Origin: SAR324 cluster bacterium SAR324-CTD7B
GTDB lineage: Bacteria; SAR324; NAC60-12
Assembly: GCA_002082305.1 (NCBI GenBank)
Contig: LSNO01000093.1
Coordinates: 1-64,000 of the forward strand
Reading direction: 5' to 3'
DNA length: 64,000 nucleotides
The notes under the pieces: model-generated
The model's database searches: none
Seen by the model: only the letters and a program-made list of their open reading frames with translations
What the model was told of the DNA's origin: nothing
Translations under genes and position numbers: made by a program
Part shown: piece after piece, positions 53,242 to 64,000 of the stretch
Layout of the letters: each line of letters opens with the position of its first letter
Position numbering within the stretch: the first letter of the stretch is position 1

Positions 53242-53357
53242 GTTTTTCCTTGTAGAAAATTGAGGAGTGGTAGTCAACTTGAGCAGAAAGTTTGTTGTGT
53301 TATTAACTGGCTTTGGAAAGATTTTCGGTAAAACTGCTGGTTACTTCATCTGTTTTT

Positions 53358-53375
53358 TTGGTATATTTGGTATAT
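53358..53375. repeat. Tandem 9-bp repeat upstream of the cyanophycinase gene
   Basis: TTGGTATAT occurs twice head to tail, about 70 bases before the start codon. A TACAAT hexamer follows shortly and could be a -10 box with TTGGTA as -35. Whether the repeat binds a regulator is unknown. Confidence 0.35.
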
Positions 53376-53444
53376 TAGTTACAATTTAAGCTCGGCAAGT
53401 AATTCAACTTAGCTAAGATCTACTTAATAAAGAAAGGATGATTT

Positions 53445-54260
53445 GTGGCGTCGCACGTAGCTGAGGGCAGTCAAAGGGGCTATATTATACCGATAGGGGG
53501 GGCTGAAAATAAAAGGAGAAAGCCTCTTATTTTGCAAAAGTTTGCCGAACTATGCGGAGGTAAAAACGCTCGTCTGGCAATTATTCCGACTGCCTCAAAA
53601 CTCAAAGAAACTGGCCAAAATTACATTGATATTTTCAGGGACATAGGGGTTGATTACTGTGTAAGTCTCCCGATTGAAGAACGCTCTGACAGCGAATGTG
53701 TAGAATATCTACAAGAACTCAATGAAGCGAGTGGGATTTTTGTGACAGGAGGCAATCAGTTACGTTTGTCCACTATTATGGGTGGTACTCCCGTTGCGCA
53801 GGCAATTCGACGAAGAAATGCGGTTGGTGTTCACTTTGCCGGAACTTCTGCGGGCGCGGCAATAATTCCGGAACATATGATCGCAGGGGGTAAGGCAGGG
53901 CCAACTCCACGTGAAGGCGGGGTGATCTTTGCTCCCGGACTGGGATTGACAAACAAGATAGTGGTAGATCAGCACTTCCGGCAGCGAGACCGTTTAGGCC
54001 GGCTGCTTTCTGCAGTGGCTTTCAATCCGTTTGCAACCGGAATCGGTATTGATGAAAACACTGCAGCCTTTATTGATCCGGAAGGTATGTTGGAAGTTGT
54101 AGGTTCTGGTGCAATTACCGTTGTTGATCCCAGCGAACTGTCTCATTCTTCTATGGAATCAGAAAACAGAGGAAAGGCCATTAACCTGACCAATTTACGA
54201 TTGCATCTTTTAACAAGTGGTGCAAAATACGATATCAATTCCAGGCAGGTTTTTAAATGA
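53445..54260 (+). CDS. cphB: Cyanophycinase
   Basis: Cyanophycinase is a serine exopeptidase of the S51 family that cuts cyanophycin into beta-Asp-Arg dipeptides. The 271-residue protein has the nucleophile Ser135 in GTSAGAA, the upstream GIFVTGGNQLRL and the DQHFRQRDRLGRLL segment that carries the catalytic histidine. Length fits the family. The start is GTG at 53445 with an AGGATG box upstream. It is the first gene of the cyanophycin cluster, 43 bases before cphA. Confidence 0.93.
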   Translation: MASHVAEGSQRGYIIPIGGAENKRRKPLILQKFAELCGGKNARLAIIPTASKLKETGQNYIDIFRDIGVDYCVSLPIEERSDSECVEYLQELNEASGIFVTGGNQLRLSTIMGGTPVAQAIRRRNAVGVHFAGTSAGAAIIPEHMIAGGKAGPTPREGGVIFAPGLGLTNKIVVDQHFRQRDRLGRLLSAVAFNPFATGIGIDENTAAFIDPEGMLEVVGSGAITVVDPSELSHSSMESENRGKAINLTNLRLHLLTSGAKYDINSRQVFK

Positions 54261-54303
54261 TGAATTTCTTCCAAATATTTTCTTTAGATTCAAGTGAAGT
54301 TTT

Positions 54304-57111
54304 ATGAAGATTCTTTCAACCAATGTTTTTCAAGGTCCAAGCTTGTATGCCCATTTCCCGGTGATTAGACACGTTTTGGATTTAGGAGTGCTTGAAGAAT
54401 GGCCCTCCACGCGTATTGGGCAGGATTACGTTGATCAGTTAGTTGAAATACTGCCGGGACTGAAAGAACATGGATGCTCCTATCGTATTCCCGGTGGGTT
54501 CATTCGTCGATTACGTGAAGATGATGGTACATGGATGGGACACATCATGGAGCATGTTGCTTTGGAACTGCAGGGCATTGCAGGGTCTGAGGTAACATTT
54601 GGCCGCACCCGCTCCACAGGCAATCCCGGCGAATATAACATGGTGTTCCAGTACATGCAGCGGGATGTAGGCTTGAAAGCCAGTGAACTCGCACTGAGGT
54701 TGCTTCTGTGTCTGCTTCCGGACTCACTCAAAAAACAACTGGATACTCCCCCTTCTGCTGATTTTAATTTTGAAGAGGAGCGCGATGCTTTCATTCGCTT
54801 TGCACAGCGTCATGAATTTGGACCCAGTACAGCCTCTTTAGTCAATGCTGCCAAAGAGCGTGGAATTCCATACCTGCGACTGAACCGGTTTAGCCTTGTG
54901 CAGTTTGGTCATGGAAAATATCAACGCCGAATACAGGCCACAATCACCAGTGAAACTCGGCAGATTGCTGTAGTCATTGCCGGTGATAAAGAAGAAACCC
55001 ACACCATACTGTACGATCTTGGCCTGCCCACCACCATGCAGCGTCTGGCCTATAGTGAAGAGGAAGCGGTCAGTCAAGCAGAAAATCTTGGATTCCCTGT
55101 GGTTGTGAAACCACTCGATGGCAACCATGGACGTGGCGTCTCGATCAATCTCATTAGCGATGAGCAAGTTGTATTGGGTTTTAATGAAGCTCGTGCCCAA
55201 AGCAATAACGAGGCGATCATTATCGAAAATTACGTTACGGGTTTTGATCATCGAATGCTGGTGGTCAACGGAGAGTTGGTTGCCGTTTCCAAACGTGTTC
55301 CGGGACACGTAGTAGGCGATGGAGAAAAAACTATTGAGGAACTGGTGGAAATTGTCAATAGTGATCCTCGCCGTGGAATTGGTCACGAAAAAGTACTGAC
55401 TCGTCTGAAGTTTGATGAGCAGGCGGAAAGACTGATGAAAAAATCTGAATACAGCAGTCAAACAGTTTTAACCAAGGGTGAAATTTTTTACCTGCGTTCC
55501 ACAGGGAATCTATCAACTGGTGGTACAGCGATTGATTTGACAGATGTAGTGCATCCTGATAATCGAGAAATGGCTGTAAGAGCAGTAAAATCTATTGGGT
55601 TGGATGTAGGTGGAGTTGATTTTCTGACGGACGATATCACCCAGTCTTACAAGGATATTGGCGGCGCCATTGTTGAAGTTAACTCTGCTCCCGGATTCCG
55701 TATGCATGTAGCTCCCAGCGAAGGTAAACCGCGTGATGTCGCAACCTCTGTAATGGACATGCTGTTTCCACCAGGATCTCCCAGTTGTATACCGATTGCC
55801 GCTATTACAGGAACTAACGGAAAAACCACTACTGCCAGGATGCTTTCATATATCATGAAGACCAGCGGGAATACAGTGGGAATGACTTCCACAGATGGGG
55901 TTTATATAGATGGTCACCTGACTGTAAAAGGTGACATGACCGGTCCAGTTTCCTCTCAAATGGTACTCCGTGATCCATCGGTAGATGTAGCAGTGATGGA
56001 AGTTGCCCGTGGTGGAATGCTGAAGAAAGGAGTTGGATTCCCCAAATGTGATGTGGCAGCATGCCTCAATGTTTCTGCAGATCACCTCGGACTAAGAGGC
56101 ATTGATACCGTAGAACAACTTGCTCGAGTAAAGCGCATTATTATTGAAATTGCCACTGATACTGCAGTACTAAATGCAGACGATTCACTTTGTCTGGAAA
56201 TGGCAAATCATACCAAGGCGGAAAATATTTGTTATGTAACTTTAGCTGACAATCATCCTCTGGTGCGTAAACACATCCGTGCTGAAGGCAGGGCGGTAGT
56301 GCTGGAAAAGGGGCTCAATGGAGACATGATCACACTTTACGATAAGGGCGCTCATATTCCTTTGCTCTGGACACACCTGATTCCGGCAACTTTGGAAGGC
56401 AAAGCAGTACATAATGTTCAAAATGCAATGTTTGCCGCAGCTCTCTCCTTCAGCATGGGAGTGCCATTGGATGACATCCGTCATGGATTGCGTACCTTTA
56501 ACACTACTTTCTTCCAGGCTCCGGGACGCATGAATATTTTTGATGATCATCCATTTAAAGTTATCCTGGATTATGCCCATAACCCTGCAGCTTTCAAGGG
56601 TATGTGTCACCTGGTATCACGCATGGAAACTCCTGGAAAAAATATTTGTGTGATTTCCATGCCCGGTGATCGGCGTGATGAGGACATTCAGGAAGTTGGA
56701 AAAACTGTCTCTGGAGTTTTTGACCATTTTATTTGTAAAGCAGATGATGATCGCCGAAAGCGGGGTTATGACGAAATACCAAAAATGCTCCGGAAAATCC
56801 TGCTGAAAAATGGTGTTTCTGAAGACTGTATTGATGTGGTTCCGGATGAAGTTGAATCAATTCATCGGGGGTTGACTCTGGCTCAGCCAGGTGATTTACT
56901 GATGGTGTTTGGAGATAATGTCTCCCGCAGTTGGAAACAGATTGTCCACTTTAACGAAGATTTAGAGTTACCGAGTATCCAGCCAAAACAGCAACCCAAA
57001 GAGGAGGATTCAGTTGAGGCCTTTGTTGAACCATTTACTATGGTGGCCGGACAACGTATTATTCAAGATGAACGGGGAGTACGTCTTGCCAGTGAAGAGG
57101 AAGCGGATTGA
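54304..57111 (+). CDS. cphA: Cyanophycin synthetase
   Basis: CphA builds the storage polymer cyanophycin by adding aspartate to a backbone and arginine to its side chains, with ATP. The 935-residue protein has an N-terminal primer-binding domain (1-160), an ATP-grasp domain (about 190-480, with FPVVVKPLDGNHGRGV and the ligand motif IVEVNSAPGFRMH), and a C-terminal Mur-ligase-like domain with P-loop GTNGKTT at 503-509 and DYAHNPAAF. Length and order are those of CphA1-type enzymes, so both activities should be present. It lies between cyanophycinase and a second Mur-type gene. Confidence 0.96.
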   Translation: MKILSTNVFQGPSLYAHFPVIRHVLDLGVLEEWPSTRIGQDYVDQLVEILPGLKEHGCSYRIPGGFIRRLREDDGTWMGHIMEHVALELQGIAGSEVTFGRTRSTGNPGEYNMVFQYMQRDVGLKASELALRLLLCLLPDSLKKQLDTPPSADFNFEEERDAFIRFAQRHEFGPSTASLVNAAKERGIPYLRLNRFSLVQFGHGKYQRRIQATITSETRQIAVVIAGDKEETHTILYDLGLPTTMQRLAYSEEEAVSQAENLGFPVVVKPLDGNHGRGVSINLISDEQVVLGFNEARAQSNNEAIIIENYVTGFDHRMLVVNGELVAVSKRVPGHVVGDGEKTIEELVEIVNSDPRRGIGHEKVLTRLKFDEQAERLMKKSEYSSQTVLTKGEIFYLRSTGNLSTGGTAIDLTDVVHPDNREMAVRAVKSIGLDVGGVDFLTDDITQSYKDIGGAIVEVNSAPGFRMHVAPSEGKPRDVATSVMDMLFPPGSPSCIPIAAITGTNGKTTTARMLSYIMKTSGNTVGMTSTDGVYIDGHLTVKGDMTGPVSSQMVLRDPSVDVAVMEVARGGMLKKGVGFPKCDVAACLNVSADHLGLRGIDTVEQLARVKRIIIEIATDTAVLNADDSLCLEMANHTKAENICYVTLADNHPLVRKHIRAEGRAVVLEKGLNGDMITLYDKGAHIPLLWTHLIPATLEGKAVHNVQNAMFAAALSFSMGVPLDDIRHGLRTFNTTFFQAPGRMNIFDDHPFKVILDYAHNPAAFKGMCHLVSRMETPGKNICVISMPGDRRDEDIQEVGKTVSGVFDHFICKADDDRRKRGYDEIPKMLRKILLKNGVSEDCIDVVPDEVESIHRGLTLAQPGDLLMVFGDNVSRSWKQIVHFNEDLELPSIQPKQQPKEEDSVEAFVEPFTMVAGQRIIQDERGVRLASEEEAD

Positions 57112-57137
57112 AAACCCCACTATTACTGTAAGCAATC

Positions 57138-58886
57138 TTGGTGAAACTAACACTCGAAAGCTGTCGCCGTTTAACGGGTCCAAGTCTGTATTTCCAGAAT
57201 CCTGGAACTGTACTTGACGTTTTTGTTTCCGGGGTTAGGTTGGAAGATGTTGTGGCATGCTGGCAGGAAGAAGTTAATAAATTACGGGAGGCAGTCTCTT
57301 GGAAACTGTCACCCTTGCATGTCAGGGAAACACATCCACAGGGAGCGAGTTTGGCCTTCAATGCGTCTATGGACCTGGTTTACTCTGCATCTGAACTTAA
57401 TGAAGCAGCTTGGAACAACTCAGTCGCACGGCTTTATGGTGAAGTTCCTGAAGACTTCGATGGTATTGTATCAAAACTCAAAGCGCAAATAGAGCAGGAA
57501 AGCAACCCAGTCCTGCTAAAACTTAATGAGGCGGCAAACAAAAAAGGCATTCAACTACTGTCTGATGACGAAACCCTTACACTTGGCCTTGGAGTTGGCT
57601 CACAAAGCTGGTCTTTAAGGGAGCTTCCCAGTCCGGATGAGGTGGATTGGAATGCTCTCCACAACATCCCCGTAACACTTATCACCGGAACTAATGGCAA
57701 ATCTACCTCCGGTAGAATGCTAGCTGCTATTGTCAGTGCTGATGGGAAAACTCCTGGACTGACTTCTACCGACTGCATCCAGGTCGGAACTGATATTCTA
57801 GATACAGGAGATTATTCCGGACCGGGGGGAGCACTCGCGGTACTGAGTGATAAACGTGTGGAATTTGGTGTGCTTGAATCAGCGCGTGGCGGCATTCTAC
57901 GTCGGGGGCTGGGAGTGACTCAGGCTCAGGCCGGAATTATTACTAATGTAGCTGAAGAGCATTTGGGCGAATATGGTGTCCGGAGTCTCGCCGACCTTAT
58001 AGATGTAAAATTTACAATCCTACGTCCTCTTGAAATATTCGGGGGCATGCTGGTTCTCAATGCAGACGACGAAGGACTGGTGGAATACGCCAAAAATTTA
58101 AACCATCCTTTGTGTTGGTTCAGTCTGGAGAAAGACTCTCATATCCTGTATGAACACCGGAAACAGGGAGGTCCCATTTGTTATGTTGAACAGGGAAAAA
58201 TATATTTTCTGCATCACGATTCTGTCCAATTCATCCTGAATGTGAATGAAATTCCGATTACTCTAAATGGTGCTGCACGTTATAATGTAGCCAATTCTCT
58301 CGGTGTTATTGCTTTGGCCAAAAATTTGGGTTTCTCAAATGAAGTGATTGCAGGAGCACTTAAGAGCTTTCAGGGTGACCTCAAGGATAATCCCGGGCGA
58401 GGCAATTATCTGACACTTCCTCTTCCCAAACCAAATCGTTCTCAAAATTCAACAGAGGAGCAATCCTTTCAGGTGTTGATAGATTTTGCACATAATGCAC
58501 ACGGATTGAGTGCAATTTGTGAAACTCTCATCAGGCTTCCTGCAAAACGAAGGCTGGTTGTGGCTGGTCATGTTGGCAGCCATAGCGACGAAGAAATACG
58601 GGAAATGACTCGTGTGGTTGCCAAAATCAAACCGGAATATTTTTATTCTCCTGAAATGCTGGATTATTTACGGGGGAGAAAAGCAGGAGAAATCTCCAAA
58701 TTGGTTTTTGATGAATTACGGCAACTGGGATATGCTGAAGAAAAACTCAGCACGGCTAACACTTGCCTGGAGGCTGTAAAATCTGCAGTTGAGCATGTTC
58801 AAGCGGGCGACCTGCTGATGCTGGTTGGTCTTGACGAGCGAAAAGAAACTCTTGCTTATCTTGAAGAACTTAAATTGCAAATATAA
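57138..58886 (+). CDS. Cyanophycin-synthetase-like Mur ligase without ATP-grasp domain
   Basis: The 582-residue protein matches the C-terminal Mur-ligase half of CphA: P-loop GTNGKST at 184-190, GLTSTDCIQVG, VLESARGGILRRGLG, NVAEEHLGEYG, and DFAHNAHGLSA near the end. Residues 1-175 are not an ATP-grasp domain and resemble nothing I can name. It therefore could form only one of the two bonds, or work together with CphA. The start is TTG at 57138 (GTG at 57141 is the alternative), 26 bases behind cphA. Such stand-alone homologues next to cphA have, to my knowledge, no agreed function. Confidence 0.88.
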   Translation: MVKLTLESCRRLTGPSLYFQNPGTVLDVFVSGVRLEDVVACWQEEVNKLREAVSWKLSPLHVRETHPQGASLAFNASMDLVYSASELNEAAWNNSVARLYGEVPEDFDGIVSKLKAQIEQESNPVLLKLNEAANKKGIQLLSDDETLTLGLGVGSQSWSLRELPSPDEVDWNALHNIPVTLITGTNGKSTSGRMLAAIVSADGKTPGLTSTDCIQVGTDILDTGDYSGPGGALAVLSDKRVEFGVLESARGGILRRGLGVTQAQAGIITNVAEEHLGEYGVRSLADLIDVKFTILRPLEIFGGMLVLNADDEGLVEYAKNLNHPLCWFSLEKDSHILYEHRKQGGPICYVEQGKIYFLHHDSVQFILNVNEIPITLNGAARYNVANSLGVIALAKNLGFSNEVIAGALKSFQGDLKDNPGRGNYLTLPLPKPNRSQNSTEEQSFQVLIDFAHNAHGLSAICETLIRLPAKRRLVVAGHVGSHSDEEIREMTRVVAKIKPEYFYSPEMLDYLRGRKAGEISKLVFDELRQLGYAEEKLSTANTCLEAVKSAVEHVQAGDLLMLVGLDERKETLAYLEELKLQI

Positions 58887-58887
58887 A

Positions 58888-60384
58888 ATGTCTCAAACCA
58901 AAAAAGTCGATCTCATTCTGCGCAACGCCCGAATAATCGATGGTACAGGCGGGCCCTCTCAATACGGCGACGTGGCAATCCAAGACGATCGTCTGCTGGC
59001 AGTGGGTGAAACAGGTAATATTCAGGCAAGTCGTGAACTTGATGTGGGAGGAAAAGTGGTTTGTCCCGGTTTTGTTGATAGCCATACTCACGATGATCGA
59101 TTGTTACTCTCTGATCCAAACATGAGTTGTAAGGTTAGCCAGGGTGTAACCACTGTGGTTGCCGGAAACTGCGGGATAAGTCTCGCACCATTGCAAATAG
59201 ATCATCGGCCTCCTCCTCCGCTAGATGTGCTGGTTAAACACCAGGATCAATTCTTTAGCGGCTTTGGCACATACCTCCAGACATTAGCCGAAGAACCTCC
59301 TTCACTCAATGCTCTTTGTCAGGTGGGTCACACTACACTTCGGGCAGCTGTCATGGATTCTTATGATCGTCCTGCAAATGCAGAAGAAGTAAGTAAAATG
59401 CGAAAAATGCTGGAGGATTCTCTGGAAGCTGGAGCCTGTGGAATGAGTACCGGGCTTTTTTATGCACCCGCAAACGCAGCGCCAACTTCGGAGGTTATCG
59501 AACTCGCCCGCGCTTTGCATGAACACGGGGCTTTTCACACGACTCACATGCGGGACGAAGGCGAAGGGGTTGCCGATTCGTTGCGTGAAACATTCACTAT
59601 TGGAGCCGAAGCAGAAATTCCAGTGGTGATTTCACATCACAAATGCAGCGGTGCCCCCAATCACGGCCGTTCGTTGGAAACTTTAGCCCTGATTGATAAA
59701 GCAAGAAAGGTTCAAGCTTTAGGACTTGATGCTTATCCCTACACAGCCAGTTCGACTGTTCTTTCAGCCTATCGAAATTTCGAAGCAAAGAAGGTGTTGA
59801 TAACTTGGTCGGAGCCGATGCCGGAATATGCAGGGAGAGAGCTCTCTGAAATCGCCAAGGAACTAGGAATGAGCGAGAAAGAGGCCGTGGAAGCCCTGAA
59901 TCCTGGAGGTGGAATTTTTTTCATGATGGATGAAGAAGACGTACAACGCATCCTCGCCTTTCCACAAACCATGATCGGCTCGGATGGTCTGCCCTCCGAT
60001 ACGCACCCTCATCCACGGCTTTGGGGAACTTTCCCACGGGTCTTGGGACACTATGTCCGGGAGGTCAAGCTGTTCAGTCTCGAAGAGGCAGTGCGCAAAA
60101 TGACATCCCTGCCGGCAGCCTGTTTTGGTCTCAAGGAACGGGGAATACTTAAGCCTGGAAACTATGCCGATTTGGTTATTTTTGATCCGGATACCATTGT
60201 GGACAGTGCAACTTTTGATGACCCTGTTCGTCCTGCACAGGGCATTGAACAAGTTATGGTCAACGGTCGAGTGGTATGGAAAGATGGTGAACACACTGGC
60301 GATCGTCCTGGCCGGGCCCTGCGTCTTCAAGATTTGGCACCATTTCGTTTTGATGCGCACCCTGAAAACGTTTCTTCAATCTAG
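58888..60384 (+). CDS. N-acyl-D-amino-acid deacylase-like amidohydrolase
   Basis: The 498-residue protein is an amidohydrolase-superfamily member of the D-aminoacylase type: metal ligands HTHDD at 66-70, the cysteine ligand in GNCGIS (about Cys95), HMRDEGE, SHHKCSG, the catalytic aspartate in GSDGLPSDTHPHPR, and the C-terminal ADLVIFDPDT. Known members hydrolyse N-acyl-D-amino acids. The ATG follows the previous stop by one base, so translation is coupled to the Mur-type synthetase. I infer a role in breaking down beta-linked Asp-Arg dipeptides or a related acyl amino acid; the family itself does not show this. Confidence 0.88.
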   Translation: MSQTKKVDLILRNARIIDGTGGPSQYGDVAIQDDRLLAVGETGNIQASRELDVGGKVVCPGFVDSHTHDDRLLLSDPNMSCKVSQGVTTVVAGNCGISLAPLQIDHRPPPPLDVLVKHQDQFFSGFGTYLQTLAEEPPSLNALCQVGHTTLRAAVMDSYDRPANAEEVSKMRKMLEDSLEAGACGMSTGLFYAPANAAPTSEVIELARALHEHGAFHTTHMRDEGEGVADSLRETFTIGAEAEIPVVISHHKCSGAPNHGRSLETLALIDKARKVQALGLDAYPYTASSTVLSAYRNFEAKKVLITWSEPMPEYAGRELSEIAKELGMSEKEAVEALNPGGGIFFMMDEEDVQRILAFPQTMIGSDGLPSDTHPHPRLWGTFPRVLGHYVREVKLFSLEEAVRKMTSLPAACFGLKERGILKPGNYADLVIFDPDTIVDSATFDDPVRPAQGIEQVMVNGRVVWKDGEHTGDRPGRALRLQDLAPFRFDAHPENVSSI

Positions 60385-60487
60385 GACAGTAAGTACCCTC
60401 CTCCTTTTCTATAGCAAATAAAGGGAACTATAAAATCGTAGACCTGCACAAAGACTTTGCATTCACTGGATTTTAAGTTGTCAGGAA

Positions 60488-60516
60488 TTGACAGTGCTTA
60501 AAACTGGTAATAAATA
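60488..60516 (+). promoter_or_regulatory. Sigma70-type promoter of the M14-HpaB-RidA operon
   Basis: TTGACA (60488-60493) and TAAATA (60511-60516) are exactly 17 bases apart. The likely start of transcription is about 40 bases before the ATG at 60563. The perfect -35 box makes this one of the best promoter matches in the window. Confidence 0.65.
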
Positions 60517-60562
60517 TTCGAAATGTTATAGTGTTTCACTACTTTAACCATGAACAGAAATC

Positions 60563-61531
60563 ATGCCGACAAAAGACGATCTCACGTATCCTGTTTCGCT
60601 GACACCACCGGATATTTCCGCCTATCGAGCAGGAAATATTGGCGTGGAATATGTCCATCAATTTGATTCAGGAAAACCGGGTCCACATGTGATGATCAGC
60701 GCGGTGGTGCATGGAAACGAGTTATGTGGTGCTATAGCTGTGGATCATCTCCTGAAAAACGAAGCGCGTCCTCTTCATGGAAAACTGACTATGGCTTTTA
60801 TGAATGTGGAGGCATTCCTCAGATTTGATCCGGAAAATCCCACCGCGTCCCGGTATGTTGATGAAGACTTTAACCGACTTTGGACTACAGAAGTTTTAGA
60901 TGGGAATCGTGACAGCGTCGAATTAAGAAGAGCCCGTGAATTGCGTCCAATTGTGGATACCGTTGATTTTTTGCTGGACATCCACTCCATGCAAACCGTA
61001 ACCCCACCATTAATGATGGCCGGGCCACTTTCTAAAGGACGGAGATTTGCTGAACAGATTGGTATTCCTGAAACAGTTATCACGGATTCCGGACACAAAG
61101 CTGGACGTCGGATGCGTGACTACGAAGGATTTTCTGATCCGGACAGTCCAAAAAATGCTTTGCTTGTTGAATGCGGACAGCACTGGGAAAAAAGCAGTTC
61201 TGAGTTAGCAATCACCTCTGCTTGGCGTTTCCTTAGTATTCTTGGTGTAATTTTGGCAGAAACAGCTGCACCTCATTTACGTGTTTTGTCTCCGACTAAA
61301 CAACACTTCGTTGATGTTTCCGGACCGTATACCATCCAGACTGATTCGTTCCAATTTGTCGAACCGTTTGTCGGACTTGAGGTGATTCCTGCTGCAGGAA
61401 CTATTATCGGTCACGATGGGGACGACCCGGTAAAAACACCGTACAATAACTGCGTCCTCATCATGCCTTCCCGTCGACAGTTGCGGGGGGATTCGGCGGT
61501 TCGTTTCGGAAGGTTTTTAGACATGGCCTGA
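60563..61531 (+). CDS. M14 succinylglutamate desuccinylase/aspartoacylase-family protein
   Basis: The 322-residue zinc enzyme has the family motif VVHGNELCG with His50 and Glu53 as ligands, DEDFNRLW (about 100-107) for substrate binding, the third ligand His141 in LLDIHSMQ, and the catalytic glutamate Glu203 in LLVECGQHW. Relatives remove acyl groups from amino acids (AstE, aspartoacylase) or open related amides. The C-terminal third is a beta-rich domain typical of the family. The gene begins a plus-strand run with the HpaB, RidA and DUF1028 genes, so it probably serves the same unknown pathway. Confidence 0.85.
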   Translation: MPTKDDLTYPVSLTPPDISAYRAGNIGVEYVHQFDSGKPGPHVMISAVVHGNELCGAIAVDHLLKNEARPLHGKLTMAFMNVEAFLRFDPENPTASRYVDEDFNRLWTTEVLDGNRDSVELRRARELRPIVDTVDFLLDIHSMQTVTPPLMMAGPLSKGRRFAEQIGIPETVITDSGHKAGRRMRDYEGFSDPDSPKNALLVECGQHWEKSSSELAITSAWRFLSILGVILAETAAPHLRVLSPTKQHFVDVSGPYTIQTDSFQFVEPFVGLEVIPAAGTIIGHDGDDPVKTPYNNCVLIMPSRRQLRGDSAVRFGRFLDMA

Positions 61532-61565
61532 GTTAGGACAATTTCACTTAAAATTAAGGATCAAC

Positions 61566-63023
61566 ATGCTACGCACAGGAAACGAATACCGCGAATCTAT
61601 CAGGGACGGACGCGAAATCTGGATTGACGGAGAGCGCGTCCACGACATGACCACCCATCCGGCTTTCAAACCGATTATTGACGTGCGGGCAAGGATGTAC
61701 GATATGGCTCATGAAACTCAATATCAAGCTCAGTTGAGTTATCAAGATGCAGAAACCAAAGAACTCAATACCACTTTTCATAAACCGCCCCGAACTCCTG
61801 AAGATTGGCAGGAAAAAGATGCGGCTTTGGATGCCGTGATGAAAGACATCGGCGGCGTGGTGATTCGCGTGAGTGATGAATCGGTTGGAGAAATGTGGTC
61901 GCTTTACGATGGTCAGGAAATGCTCAATGAGGTCGATCCGCAGTTTGCGAAAAACATTGAACAGCATATTCTCCGGACAACCCGCGAAGACCCTTTTCAC
62001 GTTTCGGCCAATACCGATCCCAAAGGCGACCGCTCCAAAACGCCGCAGGAGCAAGACCCGGATATGTTACTGCACGTCGTCAAAGAAACCGATGCAGGGA
62101 TCATTGTGCGCGGTGCAAAATTTGAAACGGCGGCGTCCTATGCCAATCAAGCTTTTGTCAAACCGACCATTGCCGGATGGGCCGGAAACGAAAAACTTTC
62201 GGATTATGCGGTCAGTTTTATTTGCGATATGGGTGCTTCCGGACTCAAACACATTTGCCGGAGCGGATTCGCCGGACGCTTGCCGATCGAAGATTATCCG
62301 CTGGCCAACCGTTTTGATGAAGTCGATACTTTGCTGGTGTTTGATAATGTTTTGATTCCGTGGGAAAATGTGCTTTTTTATCGCCACACCAAAGCGGCGG
62401 CGTTTATCCGCGCCACGCTTCACCGTTACAGTGCTTATCCTTTTGTGATGCGTCTGCGTTATGTTGCGGACATGATCATCGGAGCCGCACTTTTCAATGT
62501 CAAACAAACCGGACTCGACAAAAATCAGGCAGTCCGCGAAAAACTGGCCACACTCGCCTGTTACCGCGAAGGAATTCACGCCCATCTCACGGCTTCGATT
62601 GCGTTGGCGGAAAAAAGCCCCGGCGGTTTGCTGATGCCAAACCAATCACTACTTTACACCGGACGAATTCACGCGTGTTCCGGACTTCCGGAAATGATAC
62701 ATTTAGCGCGTGAACTTTGCGGCGGACAAATTTGCATCACGCCCAACCATGCCGCATTTCAAGATACCGATTCCGGACAATGGCTGGAAAAATACTACAC
62801 CGTTAACGAAAACTGGATTGCGGAAGACCGCCGGAAATTGCTGGCTTTTGCCCGTGATTTACTCAATTCCGATTATGCCGGACATCGTTTGACTTTTCAG
62901 TTGTTTGCGCAGTCTCCGCCTTTTGCGCATCTGAATGCAGTCTATAACAATTTCGATTTTTCCGGGCCGCTGGATTTTGTCCGTAATGCCGCCGGATTGT
63001 CGGAAAAAGTGATGAAAACTTGA
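61566..63023 (+). CDS. 4-hydroxyphenylacetate 3-hydroxylase-family (HpaB) flavin monooxygenase
   Basis: The 485-residue protein belongs to the HpaB/PvcC family of FADH2-dependent monooxygenases with an acyl-CoA dehydrogenase fold. Supporting segments are MLRTGNEYRESIRDGREIWIDG at the start, DETD-like VKETDAGIIVRGAK in the middle, VLIPWENVLFYRH and the late GGQICITPNHAAFQ. The substrate is not evident; relatives hydroxylate aromatic or pyrrole-type compounds and need a separate flavin reductase, which is not in view. The gene has noticeably higher GC than those left of it. It is followed by a RidA gene 13 bases away. Confidence 0.85.
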   Translation: MLRTGNEYRESIRDGREIWIDGERVHDMTTHPAFKPIIDVRARMYDMAHETQYQAQLSYQDAETKELNTTFHKPPRTPEDWQEKDAALDAVMKDIGGVVIRVSDESVGEMWSLYDGQEMLNEVDPQFAKNIEQHILRTTREDPFHVSANTDPKGDRSKTPQEQDPDMLLHVVKETDAGIIVRGAKFETAASYANQAFVKPTIAGWAGNEKLSDYAVSFICDMGASGLKHICRSGFAGRLPIEDYPLANRFDEVDTLLVFDNVLIPWENVLFYRHTKAAAFIRATLHRYSAYPFVMRLRYVADMIIGAALFNVKQTGLDKNQAVREKLATLACYREGIHAHLTASIALAEKSPGGLLMPNQSLLYTGRIHACSGLPEMIHLARELCGGQICITPNHAAFQDTDSGQWLEKYYTVNENWIAEDRRKLLAFARDLLNSDYAGHRLTFQLFAQSPPFAHLNAVYNNFDFSGPLDFVRNAAGLSEKVMKT

Positions 63024-63036
63024 AAAGGAACATTTG

Positions 63037-63453
63037 ATGGCACACCAACGAATCAGAAAATTCAACACCAAAGACACTTATCCGGATCAGGATTTGGATA
63101 ATGATTTGTGTCAAGTGGTACGCGCCGGAAACACGCTTTATTTGCGTGGACAAGTCGGCACAGATTTTGACGGAAATCTCATTGGTTTCAATGACCCCGA
63201 AGCTCAAACCGAACAAGCGATGAAAAATGTCAAACAACTTTTGGAAGAAGCCGGAAGTTGTCTCGATCATGTTTGTAAAATCACGATTTATTTGACGAGC
63301 AGGGAAATTCGAGAAGCCGTTTATCGCACGGTCGGCAAATGGCTCAAAGGCGTGTTTCCGGTTTCAACCGGAGTCATTGTGGCAGGGTTGGCAAAACCGG
63401 AATGGTTGCTGGAAGTAGATGTGATTGCCGTAATACCGGAGGAGGACAAATGA
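63037..63453 (+). CDS. RidA/YjgF-family protein
   Basis: The 138-residue protein has the RidA fold: GNTLYLRGQVGTDFDGNL, QTEQAMKNVKQLLEEAGSCLDHVCKITIYLT and a C-terminal strand GLAKPEWLLEVDVIAVI. RidA proteins hydrolyse reactive imines or enamines, or act as deaminases in catabolic operons. The usual binding arginine in the VxxR-type motif is replaced in the late strand region, so activity may differ from canonical RidA. The ATG at 63037 follows a GGAAC box; the stop overlaps the DUF1028 start by four bases. Confidence 0.85.
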   Translation: MAHQRIRKFNTKDTYPDQDLDNDLCQVVRAGNTLYLRGQVGTDFDGNLIGFNDPEAQTEQAMKNVKQLLEEAGSCLDHVCKITIYLTSREIREAVYRTVGKWLKGVFPVSTGVIVAGLAKPEWLLEVDVIAVIPEEDK

Positions 63454-64000
63454 CGCTTTCCATTGTCGGACGCTGTCCGGAAACAGGGATGCTCGGCGGA
63501 TCAATCACTTCATCAAGCATTTGCGTGGCGAGTCGTTGTTTGTTCACGCGTTCCGGAGTTGGTGCGGCACTGTCGCAAAATGTCACGGATCCGCGTTTGG
63601 GAATCCGGATGCTCGATTTGCTGGAATCTCGCACCGGACGTTCCGGGGGAGCAGACGTAAACACGGCGATTTCCCAAGTTGTAGCGGAGGCAAATCACAT
63701 TGAATGGCGGCAACTCGTGCTTTTGGATTCTTCCGGAAAATCAGCCATTCACACCGGAGAAAAGGCATTGGGCCGAAACGCTTCCGCACAAGGAAATCAG
63801 TGCGCCGCCGCCGCAAATCTTTTGGCAAATGAAGAAGTTCCGCAAACAATGGTGACCGCTTTTGAACAAAGCTCCGGACATCTCGCACAAAGGCTTATCA
63901 CCGCTCTCGAAGCCGGAATTGCCGCCGGTGGCGAAGAAGGGCCGGTGCGTTCTGCCGGAGTGCAGGTCGTTCATAAAGTTTCGTGGCCCGTCGTTGATTT
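63450..64000 (+). CDS. DUF1028-family protein, cut by the window end
   Basis: The frame starts at ATG 63450, overlapping the RidA stop (ATGA) with a GGAGG box upstream, and stays open to the last base (183 codons seen). The N-terminus MTLSIVGRCPETGMLGGSI and the later GAALSQNVTDPRLGIRMLDLL are those of DUF1028, an Ntn-hydrolase-like family of unknown function found in catabolic clusters. A full-length member has about 220-300 residues, so up to about 115 are missing. Its coupling to RidA supports a shared pathway. Confidence 0.85.
   Translation, partial: MTLSIVGRCPETGMLGGSITSSSICVASRCLFTRSGVGAALSQNVTDPRLGIRMLDLLESRTGRSGGADVNTAISQVVAEANHIEWRQLVLLDSSGKSAIHTGEKALGRNASAQGNQCAAAANLLANEEVPQTMVTAFEQSSGHLAQRLITALEAGIAAGGEEGPVRSAGVQVVHKVSWPVVD

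What the first reader, a model, noticed from the sequence alone, without database searches (positions are those of the whole stretch)
60488..64000. Unassigned catabolic operon: M14 acylase, HpaB monooxygenase, RidA, DUF1028
Four genes behind a strong promoter pair a flavin monooxygenase with an imine-handling protein, an acyl-amino-acid hydrolase and an Ntn-hydrolase-like protein. The combination resembles ring-opening pathways such as the Rut system in logic but not in families. The substrate is unknown and further genes probably continue past the window.
Basis: partly seen in the sequence, partly recalled or inferred. Interest (0 to 1): 0.6.

Follow-up and report, generated by a model that had tools for sequence, protein, structure and literature searches.

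The report
Variant histamine-breakdown operon with swapped oxygenase
Four linked genes in a marine SAR324 bacterium most likely break down imidazole-acetate, the acid made from histamine, to the amino acid aspartate, using a different kind of oxygen-adding enzyme and probably a different final hydrolase from those in the known bacterial histamine pathway.

Summary
The four genes are real: M14 hydrolase, HpaB-family monooxygenase, RidA-family protein and DUF1028. HpaB, RidA and DUF1028 are co-conserved in dozens of loci across several phyla. The "strong promoter" is not supported.

The pathway can be assigned. In close SAR324 relatives the next gene is a histamine dehydrogenase. Elsewhere the cassette sits with LysR, M20 deacylase, aldehyde dehydrogenase, class III aminotransferase and permease. 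That matches the published Pseudomonas histamine genes (hinFLHG: FAD monooxygenase, enamine deaminase, two amidases). The window therefore most likely encodes the lower pathway, imidazole-4-acetate to aspartate.

It is a variant. The oxygenase slot is filled either by HpaB or by an unrelated FMO-like flavoprotein. The two exchange at least seven times on a RidA+DUF1028 tree, including inside SAR324. All 91 HpaB orthologues replace two of three phenol-binding residues of true HpaB (residue roles recalled). M14 occupies the deformylase role usually filled by M20.

Enzyme activities are inferred. HinF's own family could not be checked directly. A close relative has lost the whole block cleanly.

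The parts
60563..61531 (+). M14 AstE/AspA-like zinc hydrolase; proposed N-formyl-aspartate deformylase in the role of HinG (an M20 enzyme elsewhere)
   Evidence: PF24827. H50, E53, R97, N104, R105, H141, E203 invariant in 12-13 homologues. Fold matches AstE and EutE/DoeB best. Adjacent to the oxygenase-RidA-DUF1028 genes in seven SAR324 genomes.
61566..63023 (+). HpaB-family FADH2-dependent monooxygenase; proposed imidazole-4-acetate monooxygenase
   Evidence: PF11794/PF03241. Misses the HpaB equivalog cut-off, 207.9 vs 480.2 bits. Clade-invariant Glu105 and Ser147 in place of Tyr104 and His142. Exchanges with an FMO-like enzyme at the same slot.
63037..63453 (+). RidA-family protein, HinL-like; proposed C=N (formimino) hydrolase
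   Evidence: PF01042. Present in 84 of 91 loci. Lacks the archetypal RidA Arg (PVST; S110), with R37, R92, T111, G112 and E126 invariant.
63450..64000 (+). DUF1028, HinH-like, Ntn-hydrolase-like amidase; continues to contig position 64139; proposed imidazolone (lactam) hydrolase
   Evidence: PF06267, 197.9 bits. Thr2 after Met1 in all 42 aligned starts. Solved relative 2imh.
60488..60493 (+). TTGACA, -35-like hexamer without a scored -10 partner
   Evidence: Read; not called by the scan.
58888..60384 (+). Amidohydrolase upstream; possible but unproven member of the module (precedes M14 in two other SAR324 genomes)
   Evidence: PF07969. Amidohydrolase-M14 pairs in G011 and G012; in G003 it occurs with cyanophycin genes without M14.

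Best explanation
The operon encodes the lower part of histamine catabolism: imidazole-4-acetate is turned into L-aspartate, formate and ammonia. Proposed steps: (1) the HpaB-family enzyme, fed FADH2 by a flavin reductase encoded elsewhere in the genome, oxygenates imidazole-4-acetate to the imidazolone; (2) the Ntn-like DUF1028 protein opens the imidazolone lactam to N-formimino-aspartate; (3) the RidA-family protein hydrolyses the formimino C=N to N-formyl-aspartate plus ammonia (steps 2 and 3 could be the other way round, or partly spontaneous); (4) the M14 AspA-like hydrolase removes formate to give aspartate. Shown here: gene content, operon structure, co-conservation, linkage to histamine dehydrogenase and other hin-type genes, and exchange of HpaB with an FMO-like enzyme at the same slot. 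Inferred: every reaction, which step each hydrolase performs, and the supply of imidazole-acetate in this genome, which lacks the operon-linked histamine dehydrogenase.
For: HpaB-RidA-DUF1028 co-conserved. The gene after DUF1028 in L013 is a histamine dehydrogenase homologue (3k30 E 5.6e-268, 6de6 5.3e-267; trimethylamine dehydrogenase only 2.6e-159); homologues of at least 56% identity lie in nine HpaB-type, five FMO-type and two mixed cassette loci. Order and roles match published hinFLHG plus HinK, HinC, HinD, HinI and HinA. The oxygenase slot alternates between HpaB and FMO-like inside SAR324 with M14, RidA, DUF1028 and histamine dehydrogenase kept. At least seven exchanges on the tree. 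In Caballeronia the same transporter-Rieske-LysR module (75-85% identical) accompanies either cassette. Ten of 12 HpaB-type genomes lack an FMO orthologue. HutI above its curated cut-off, aspartase and HutD recur as neighbours. Active-site changes away from phenol binding.
Against: No assay. In the window itself histamine dehydrogenase, flavin reductase, M20 HinG and LysR are absent from the locus; only a 58% histamine-dehydrogenase paralogue, two flavin-reductase-family genes and a 38% aspartase/fumarase-type gene exist elsewhere. Two loci (L097, L098) and two genomes (G067, G068) hold both oxygenase types, which a strict exchange would not need.
Confidence: 0.77

Rival explanations
1. Same cassette logic but a different imidazole or N-heterocycle substrate (for example a methylated imidazole-acetate), with HpaB widening the substrate range rather than replacing HinF.
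For: L097 and L098 carry both HpaB and FMO; in L098 HpaB sits beside its own transporter, apart from RidA-DUF1028. PhyH and Rieske oxygenases, which could demethylate, recur near the cassette.
Against: Clean one-for-one replacement in SAR324 with the same histamine dehydrogenase downstream; most HpaB-type genomes have no FMO orthologue; the Rieske gene accompanies both types in Caballeronia.
Confidence: 0.13
2. A genuine phenol or aminoaromatic hydroxylase pathway (4-hydroxyphenylacetate, anthranilate) in which the RidA protein acts as a 2-aminomuconate-type deaminase.
For: Pfam family HpaB, and RidA-family proteins serve as 2-aminomuconate deaminases in such pathways (recalled).
Against: HpaB equivalog cut-off missed, 207.9 vs 480.2 bits. 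Tyr104/His142 replaced in all 91 orthologues. No ring-cleavage dioxygenase family recurs beside the cassette.
Confidence: 0.04
3. Rut-like opening of a pyrimidine or pyrrole ring.
For: Flavin monooxygenase plus RidA plus hydrolase is the Rut logic.
Against: RutC cut-off missed, 41 vs 169 bits. No Rut-type oxygenase or hydrolase among the recurrent neighbours; histamine dehydrogenase instead.
Confidence: 0.03
4. For M14 alone: it belongs to the upstream cyanophycin gene set as a CphZ-like dipeptide hydrolase, and only HpaB-RidA-DUF1028 form the imidazole-acetate operon.
For: Cyanophycinase-type S51 peptidase and cyanophycin synthetase genes lie directly upstream, also in L013. CphZ (8ein, 8eip) is among the fold matches of M14, behind AstE and EutE.
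Against: G002 and G003 have the cyanophycin genes but no M14, while G005, G013 and G014 have M14 next to FMO-RidA-DUF1028 (in G005 and G013 directly after the DsbH-like gene, without cyanophycin genes between). M14 also lies by the cassette in Paraburkholderia and Caballeronia. No sequence match to CphZ at E 0.01.
Confidence: 0.18

Closest known systems
hinFLHG operon, histamine catabolism of Pseudomonas putida U / P. aeruginosa PAO1 (PA5393-PA5390)
   Same: Order and roles: flavin monooxygenase, RidA-family protein, amidase (DUF1028 by position), N-acyl-aspartate hydrolase; in relatives also histamine oxidation, ALDH, LysR and permease.
   Different: HpaB-family oxygenase instead of what is most likely an FMO-type HinF; M14 instead of M20 HinG and placed first; no LysR, permease or histamine dehydrogenase at the window locus.
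4-hydroxyphenylacetate 3-monooxygenase HpaB (two-component, FADH2-dependent; T. thermophilus 2yyk)
   Same: Fold family and full-length alignment (E 2.3e-47); flavin reductase neighbours in most relatives; Arg100 equivalent kept.
   Different: Equivalog cut-off missed; Tyr104 and His142 replaced by invariant Glu and Ser; neighbourhood not aromatic.
Histamine dehydrogenase clusters (TMADH family; PDB 3k30, 6de6)
   Same: Direct downstream neighbour in six SAR324 relatives (and L014).
   Different: Lost from the window locus; only a paralogue remains elsewhere.
Rut pathway (RutA-RutC)
   Same: Overall logic: flavin monooxygenase, RidA-family protein, hydrolase.
   Different: No shared gene family except the broad RidA superfamily; RutC cut-off missed.
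AstE/AspA/EutE (DoeB)/CphZ hydrolases
   Same: Family PF24827, conserved metal and substrate residues, same fold.
   Different: Only 14-19% identity to the solved members; genomic context is the RidA-DUF1028 operon.

Membership tests
hin (histamine) lower pathway | RidA-family HinL and amidase HinH directly after the monooxygenase | tested here: met
   Order HpaB-RidA-DUF1028; that HinH is DUF1028 rests on position in Pseudomonas and Burkholderia operons, not on HinH's own sequence.
hin (histamine) lower pathway | HinF orthologue in the monooxygenase slot | tested here: inconclusive
   The slot holds HpaB. Whether HinF is FMO-type or HpaB-type could not be read; FMO-type is favoured by order and by Brevibacterium values of 60-63% over 92-94%.
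hin (histamine) lower pathway | M20-type HinG N-formyl-aspartate hydrolase in the operon | tested here: not met
   No M20 in the locus; M14 at the other end.
hin (histamine) lower pathway | Linkage to histamine or imidazole-acetaldehyde oxidation genes | tested here: not met
   Absent at the window locus; present in six SAR324 relatives. A 58% paralogue lies on C85.
hin (histamine) lower pathway | Conversion of imidazole-4-acetate to aspartate | not testable with these tools
   Needs enzyme assays.
4-hydroxyphenylacetate 3-hydroxylase (HpaB, TIGR02309) | Curated equivalog score | tested here: not met
   207.9 vs 480.2 bits.
4-hydroxyphenylacetate 3-hydroxylase (HpaB, TIGR02309) | Phenol-binding residues Arg100, Tyr104, His142 (roles recalled) | tested here: not met
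   R / E / S in all 91 orthologues.
HpaB superfamily | PF11794 and PF03241 above cut-off | tested here: met
   276 and 182 bits vs 35 and 25.
RutC / RidA archetype | Curated RutC or Rid (TIGR00004) score and the archetypal Arg105 (role recalled) | tested here: not met
   41 vs 169 and 58 vs 106 bits; Ser110 at the Arg position.
AstE/AspA M14 hydrolases | PF24827 score and conserved metal and substrate residues | tested here: met
   54.7 vs 25 bits; residues; fold. Substrate not testable.
DUF1028 / Ntn-hydrolase-like | PF06267 score; N-terminal nucleophile candidate | tested here: met
   197.9 vs 26.2 bits; Thr2 in 42 of 42 aligned starts. Amidase activity not testable.

The most novel reading that the evidence does not exclude
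A clade of HpaB-family two-component flavoproteins is a second, unrelated imidazole-4-acetate monooxygenase that has exchanged with the single-component enzyme of the histamine pathway at least seven times, with a parallel M20-to-M14 exchange at the deformylase step; and DUF1028, so far without function, is an amidase of this pathway.
Probability: 0.65. Interest if true: 0.6.

Novelty: new variant of a known kind. Interest (0 to 1): 0.5.

Why it matters
It gives a testable function to a broad clade of proteins now annotated as '4-hydroxyphenylacetate 3-hydroxylase' and points to a role for DUF1028. It extends imidazole-acetate/histamine breakdown to an uncultured ocean lineage (SAR324), and offers a case of repeated replacement of one enzyme by an unrelated one at a fixed slot in an operon.

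Tried and rejected
Anthranilate 3-monooxygenase / kynurenine-type pathway: first guess, dropped because no ring-cleavage dioxygenase recurs and histamine-type genes do. Rut membership: cut-offs missed. True HpaB: cut-off and residues missed. M14 as a cyanophycin-operon gene: disfavoured by M14's distribution. The C85 histamine-dehydrogenase-like gene as the missing first enzyme: it is a paralogue, since G005 has both. Longest-ORF gene calling failed in high-GC loci and was replaced by codon-usage scoring. Paper searches for DUF1028 plus monooxygenase, and for HpaB or RidA with histamine catabolism, found nothing. I first labelled the scrap after DUF1028 a glyoxalase; on reading it it looks like the C-terminus of a GNAT acetyltransferase.
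Full report
WHAT IS THERE. The four genes exist as described: M14 60563-61531, HpaB 61566-63023, RidA 63037-63453, DUF1028 from 63450, all on the + strand with gaps of 34 and 13 bp and a 4-bp overlap. DUF1028 ends at contig position 64139; the contig ends at 67034. There is a perfect TTGACA at 60488, but no promoter is called there and promoter-like sites are not above chance in the region. The genome is 87.7% complete in 148 contigs; its nearest named relatives are SAR324-cluster MAGs.

CO-CONSERVATION. HpaB orthologues of 55-86% identity were gathered from genomes and plasmids. In 91 loci (a few from the same genome) RidA is present in 84 and DUF1028 in 75; some absences are contig ends.

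WHAT PATHWAY. Gene families that recur beside the cassette: LysR in 59 loci, flavin reductase 43, M20 deacylases 27 and 10, class III aminotransferase 17, aldehyde dehydrogenase 17, a 692-aa FMN-type oxidoreductase 10, cytosine-type permease 8, HAL-like lyase 7, HutI-like 7, HutD 6, aspartase-like 5. The 692-aa family member placed directly after DUF1028 in the SAR324 relative L013 is a histamine dehydrogenase homologue: 3k30 E 5.6e-268 and 6de6 5.3e-267, against 2.6e-159 for trimethylamine dehydrogenase. HutI in gammaproteobacterial loci passes its curated cut-off. The published histamine pathway of P. putida U has hinFLHG encoding HinF FAD monooxygenase EC 1.14.13.5, HinL enamine deaminase, HinH amidase and HinG EC 3.5.1.8 amidase, which turn imidazole-4-acetate into aspartate, with HinK a LysR regulator, HinC aminotransferase, HinD aldehyde dehydrogenase and HinI aspartase; in PAO1 the four are PA5393-PA5390 (PMC8231116, PMC6467879). 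The chemistry between imidazole-acetate and aspartate (imidazolone, formimino-aspartate, formyl-aspartate) is recalled textbook knowledge. Pseudomonas loci L040 and L064 show HpaB-RidA-DUF1028-M20 with LysR, ALDH and aminotransferase, the same order of roles.

THE OXYGENASE EXCHANGE. SAR324 genomes without HpaB (G005, G012, G013, G014) have the same operon with a 462-aa FMO-like flavoprotein in its place: M14 - FMO - RidA - DUF1028 - histamine dehydrogenase, followed by an HDAC-like gene where the contig allows. The same FMO type heads FMO-RidA-DUF1028 operons, mostly with an M20 gene, in Burkholderia, Caballeronia, Streptomyces, Klebsiella and others on plasmids. On a tree of concatenated RidA+DUF1028 from 88 loci (70 HpaB, 16 FMO, 2 both) the oxygenase type changes at least seven times on starred branches, and the SAR324 clade (100*) holds 3 HpaB and 4 FMO loci. 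The sample was drawn with HpaB and FMO queries, so the number holds for this sample and is not a rate; the tree was the quick kind. In Caballeronia the transporter, Rieske and LysR genes (75-85% identical) accompany either the FMO or the HpaB cassette, and there the whole catabolic cassette differs. Of 12 HpaB-type genomes, ten lack an FMO orthologue. I infer that both oxygenases do the same job. That HinF itself is the FMO type is inferred, not shown: the four-gene Burkholderia order matches hinFLHG, and the coverage and identity published for Brevibacterium HinF look like FMO hits.

RESIDUES. Against T. thermophilus HpaB, Arg100 is kept, while Tyr104 and His142 are Glu105 and Ser147 in all 91 clade members. 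I recall these three residues as the phenol-hydroxyl binders, so the clade is unlikely to act on 4-hydroxyphenylacetate; the equivalog cut-off is missed too. RidA lacks the archetypal Arg105 (Ser110). DUF1028 has Thr2 after Met1 in all 42 aligned starts and a distant solved relative, 2imh. M14 keeps the AspA-type metal and substrate residues, and its model (pLDDT 86) matches AstE and EutE best, with AspA and CphZ also found.

IS M14 PART OF IT? The window places M14 between a cyanophycin gene set and HpaB. In the genus, M14 occurs next to the oxygenase-RidA-DUF1028 genes in all seven genomes where this can be read (G000, G005, G006, G012, G013, G014, G016), while G002 and G003, which have the cyanophycin genes, lack M14. 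M14 also accompanies the cassette in Paraburkholderia sprentiae (no M20 in the fetched stretch) and one Caballeronia. More distant M14 homologues sit beside oligopeptide transporters, so the family is not specific to this pathway.

WHAT THIS GENOME LACKS. The flavin reductase is intact in L013, decayed with several stops in L014 and absent here; two flavin-reductase-family genes exist elsewhere in the genome. Histamine dehydrogenase and the HDAC-like gene are missing after DUF1028. A 58% paralogue lies on contig C85 beside a class III aminotransferase and a glutamine-synthetase-like gene; G005 has both paralogues. So the window organism may start from imidazole-4-acetate or use another first step.

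LOCUS HISTORY. G004, 95-97% identical in DNA, joins position 53315 to 64266 directly, with CTGGCT at both block ends and the tail of the GNAT-like fragment kept, which favours deletion in G004. G003 carries other cargo at the same place. The operon is thus a strain-variable module.

VERDICT. A new variant of a known kind: works like the lower hin pathway, with an HpaB-family oxygenase and an M14 hydrolase in two roles. It is not filed as the hin operon proper because the M20 HinG feature and linkage to histamine oxidation were tested and not met at this locus.

Noticed in passing
window 53316-64000 (block runs to contig 64265); L161: A relative 95-97% identical in DNA (G004) lacks the whole 10.95-kb block (cyanophycin genes, amidohydrolase, M14, HpaB, RidA, DUF1028); CTGGCT occurs at both ends, suggesting a short-homology deletion in G004.
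   Followed up: partly
window 53445-58886; L013:303-5735: Cyanophycinase-type peptidase, cyanophycin synthetase and a second Mur-ligase-like gene lie directly upstream of the operon here and in another SAR324 species; aspartate made by the operon could feed cyanophycin.
   Followed up: partly
L162:7215-11290: At the same variable site genome G003 carries a crotonase-like gene and a glycyl-radical-type enzyme with its activase instead of the imidazole-acetate operon.
   Followed up: no
L149: A mobilizable Klebsiella pneumoniae plasmid carries FMO-RidA-DUF1028-argE plus cytosine permease and ALDH, a hin-like operon; 105 Klebsiella plasmid records hold the FMO-type gene, context not checked in the others.
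   Followed up: no
L046, L048, L055, L058, L065, L067, L072: Gammaproteobacterial loci combine the cassette with an imidazolonepropionase (HutI) and a HAL-like lyase, which may mark a related imidazole substrate.
   Followed up: no
L111 (contig C85 of the window genome): A histamine-dehydrogenase-like paralogue lies beside a class III aminotransferase and a glutamine-synthetase-like gene; substrate unknown.
   Followed up: partly
L014:1056-1412: The flavin reductase upstream of HpaB is a pseudogene with stops in one SAR324 genome, intact in L013 and absent in the window.
   Followed up: yes
L002:8143-8310 (contig 64143-64310): C-terminal scrap that looks like a GNAT acetyltransferase at the right edge of the variable block.
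   Followed up: partly
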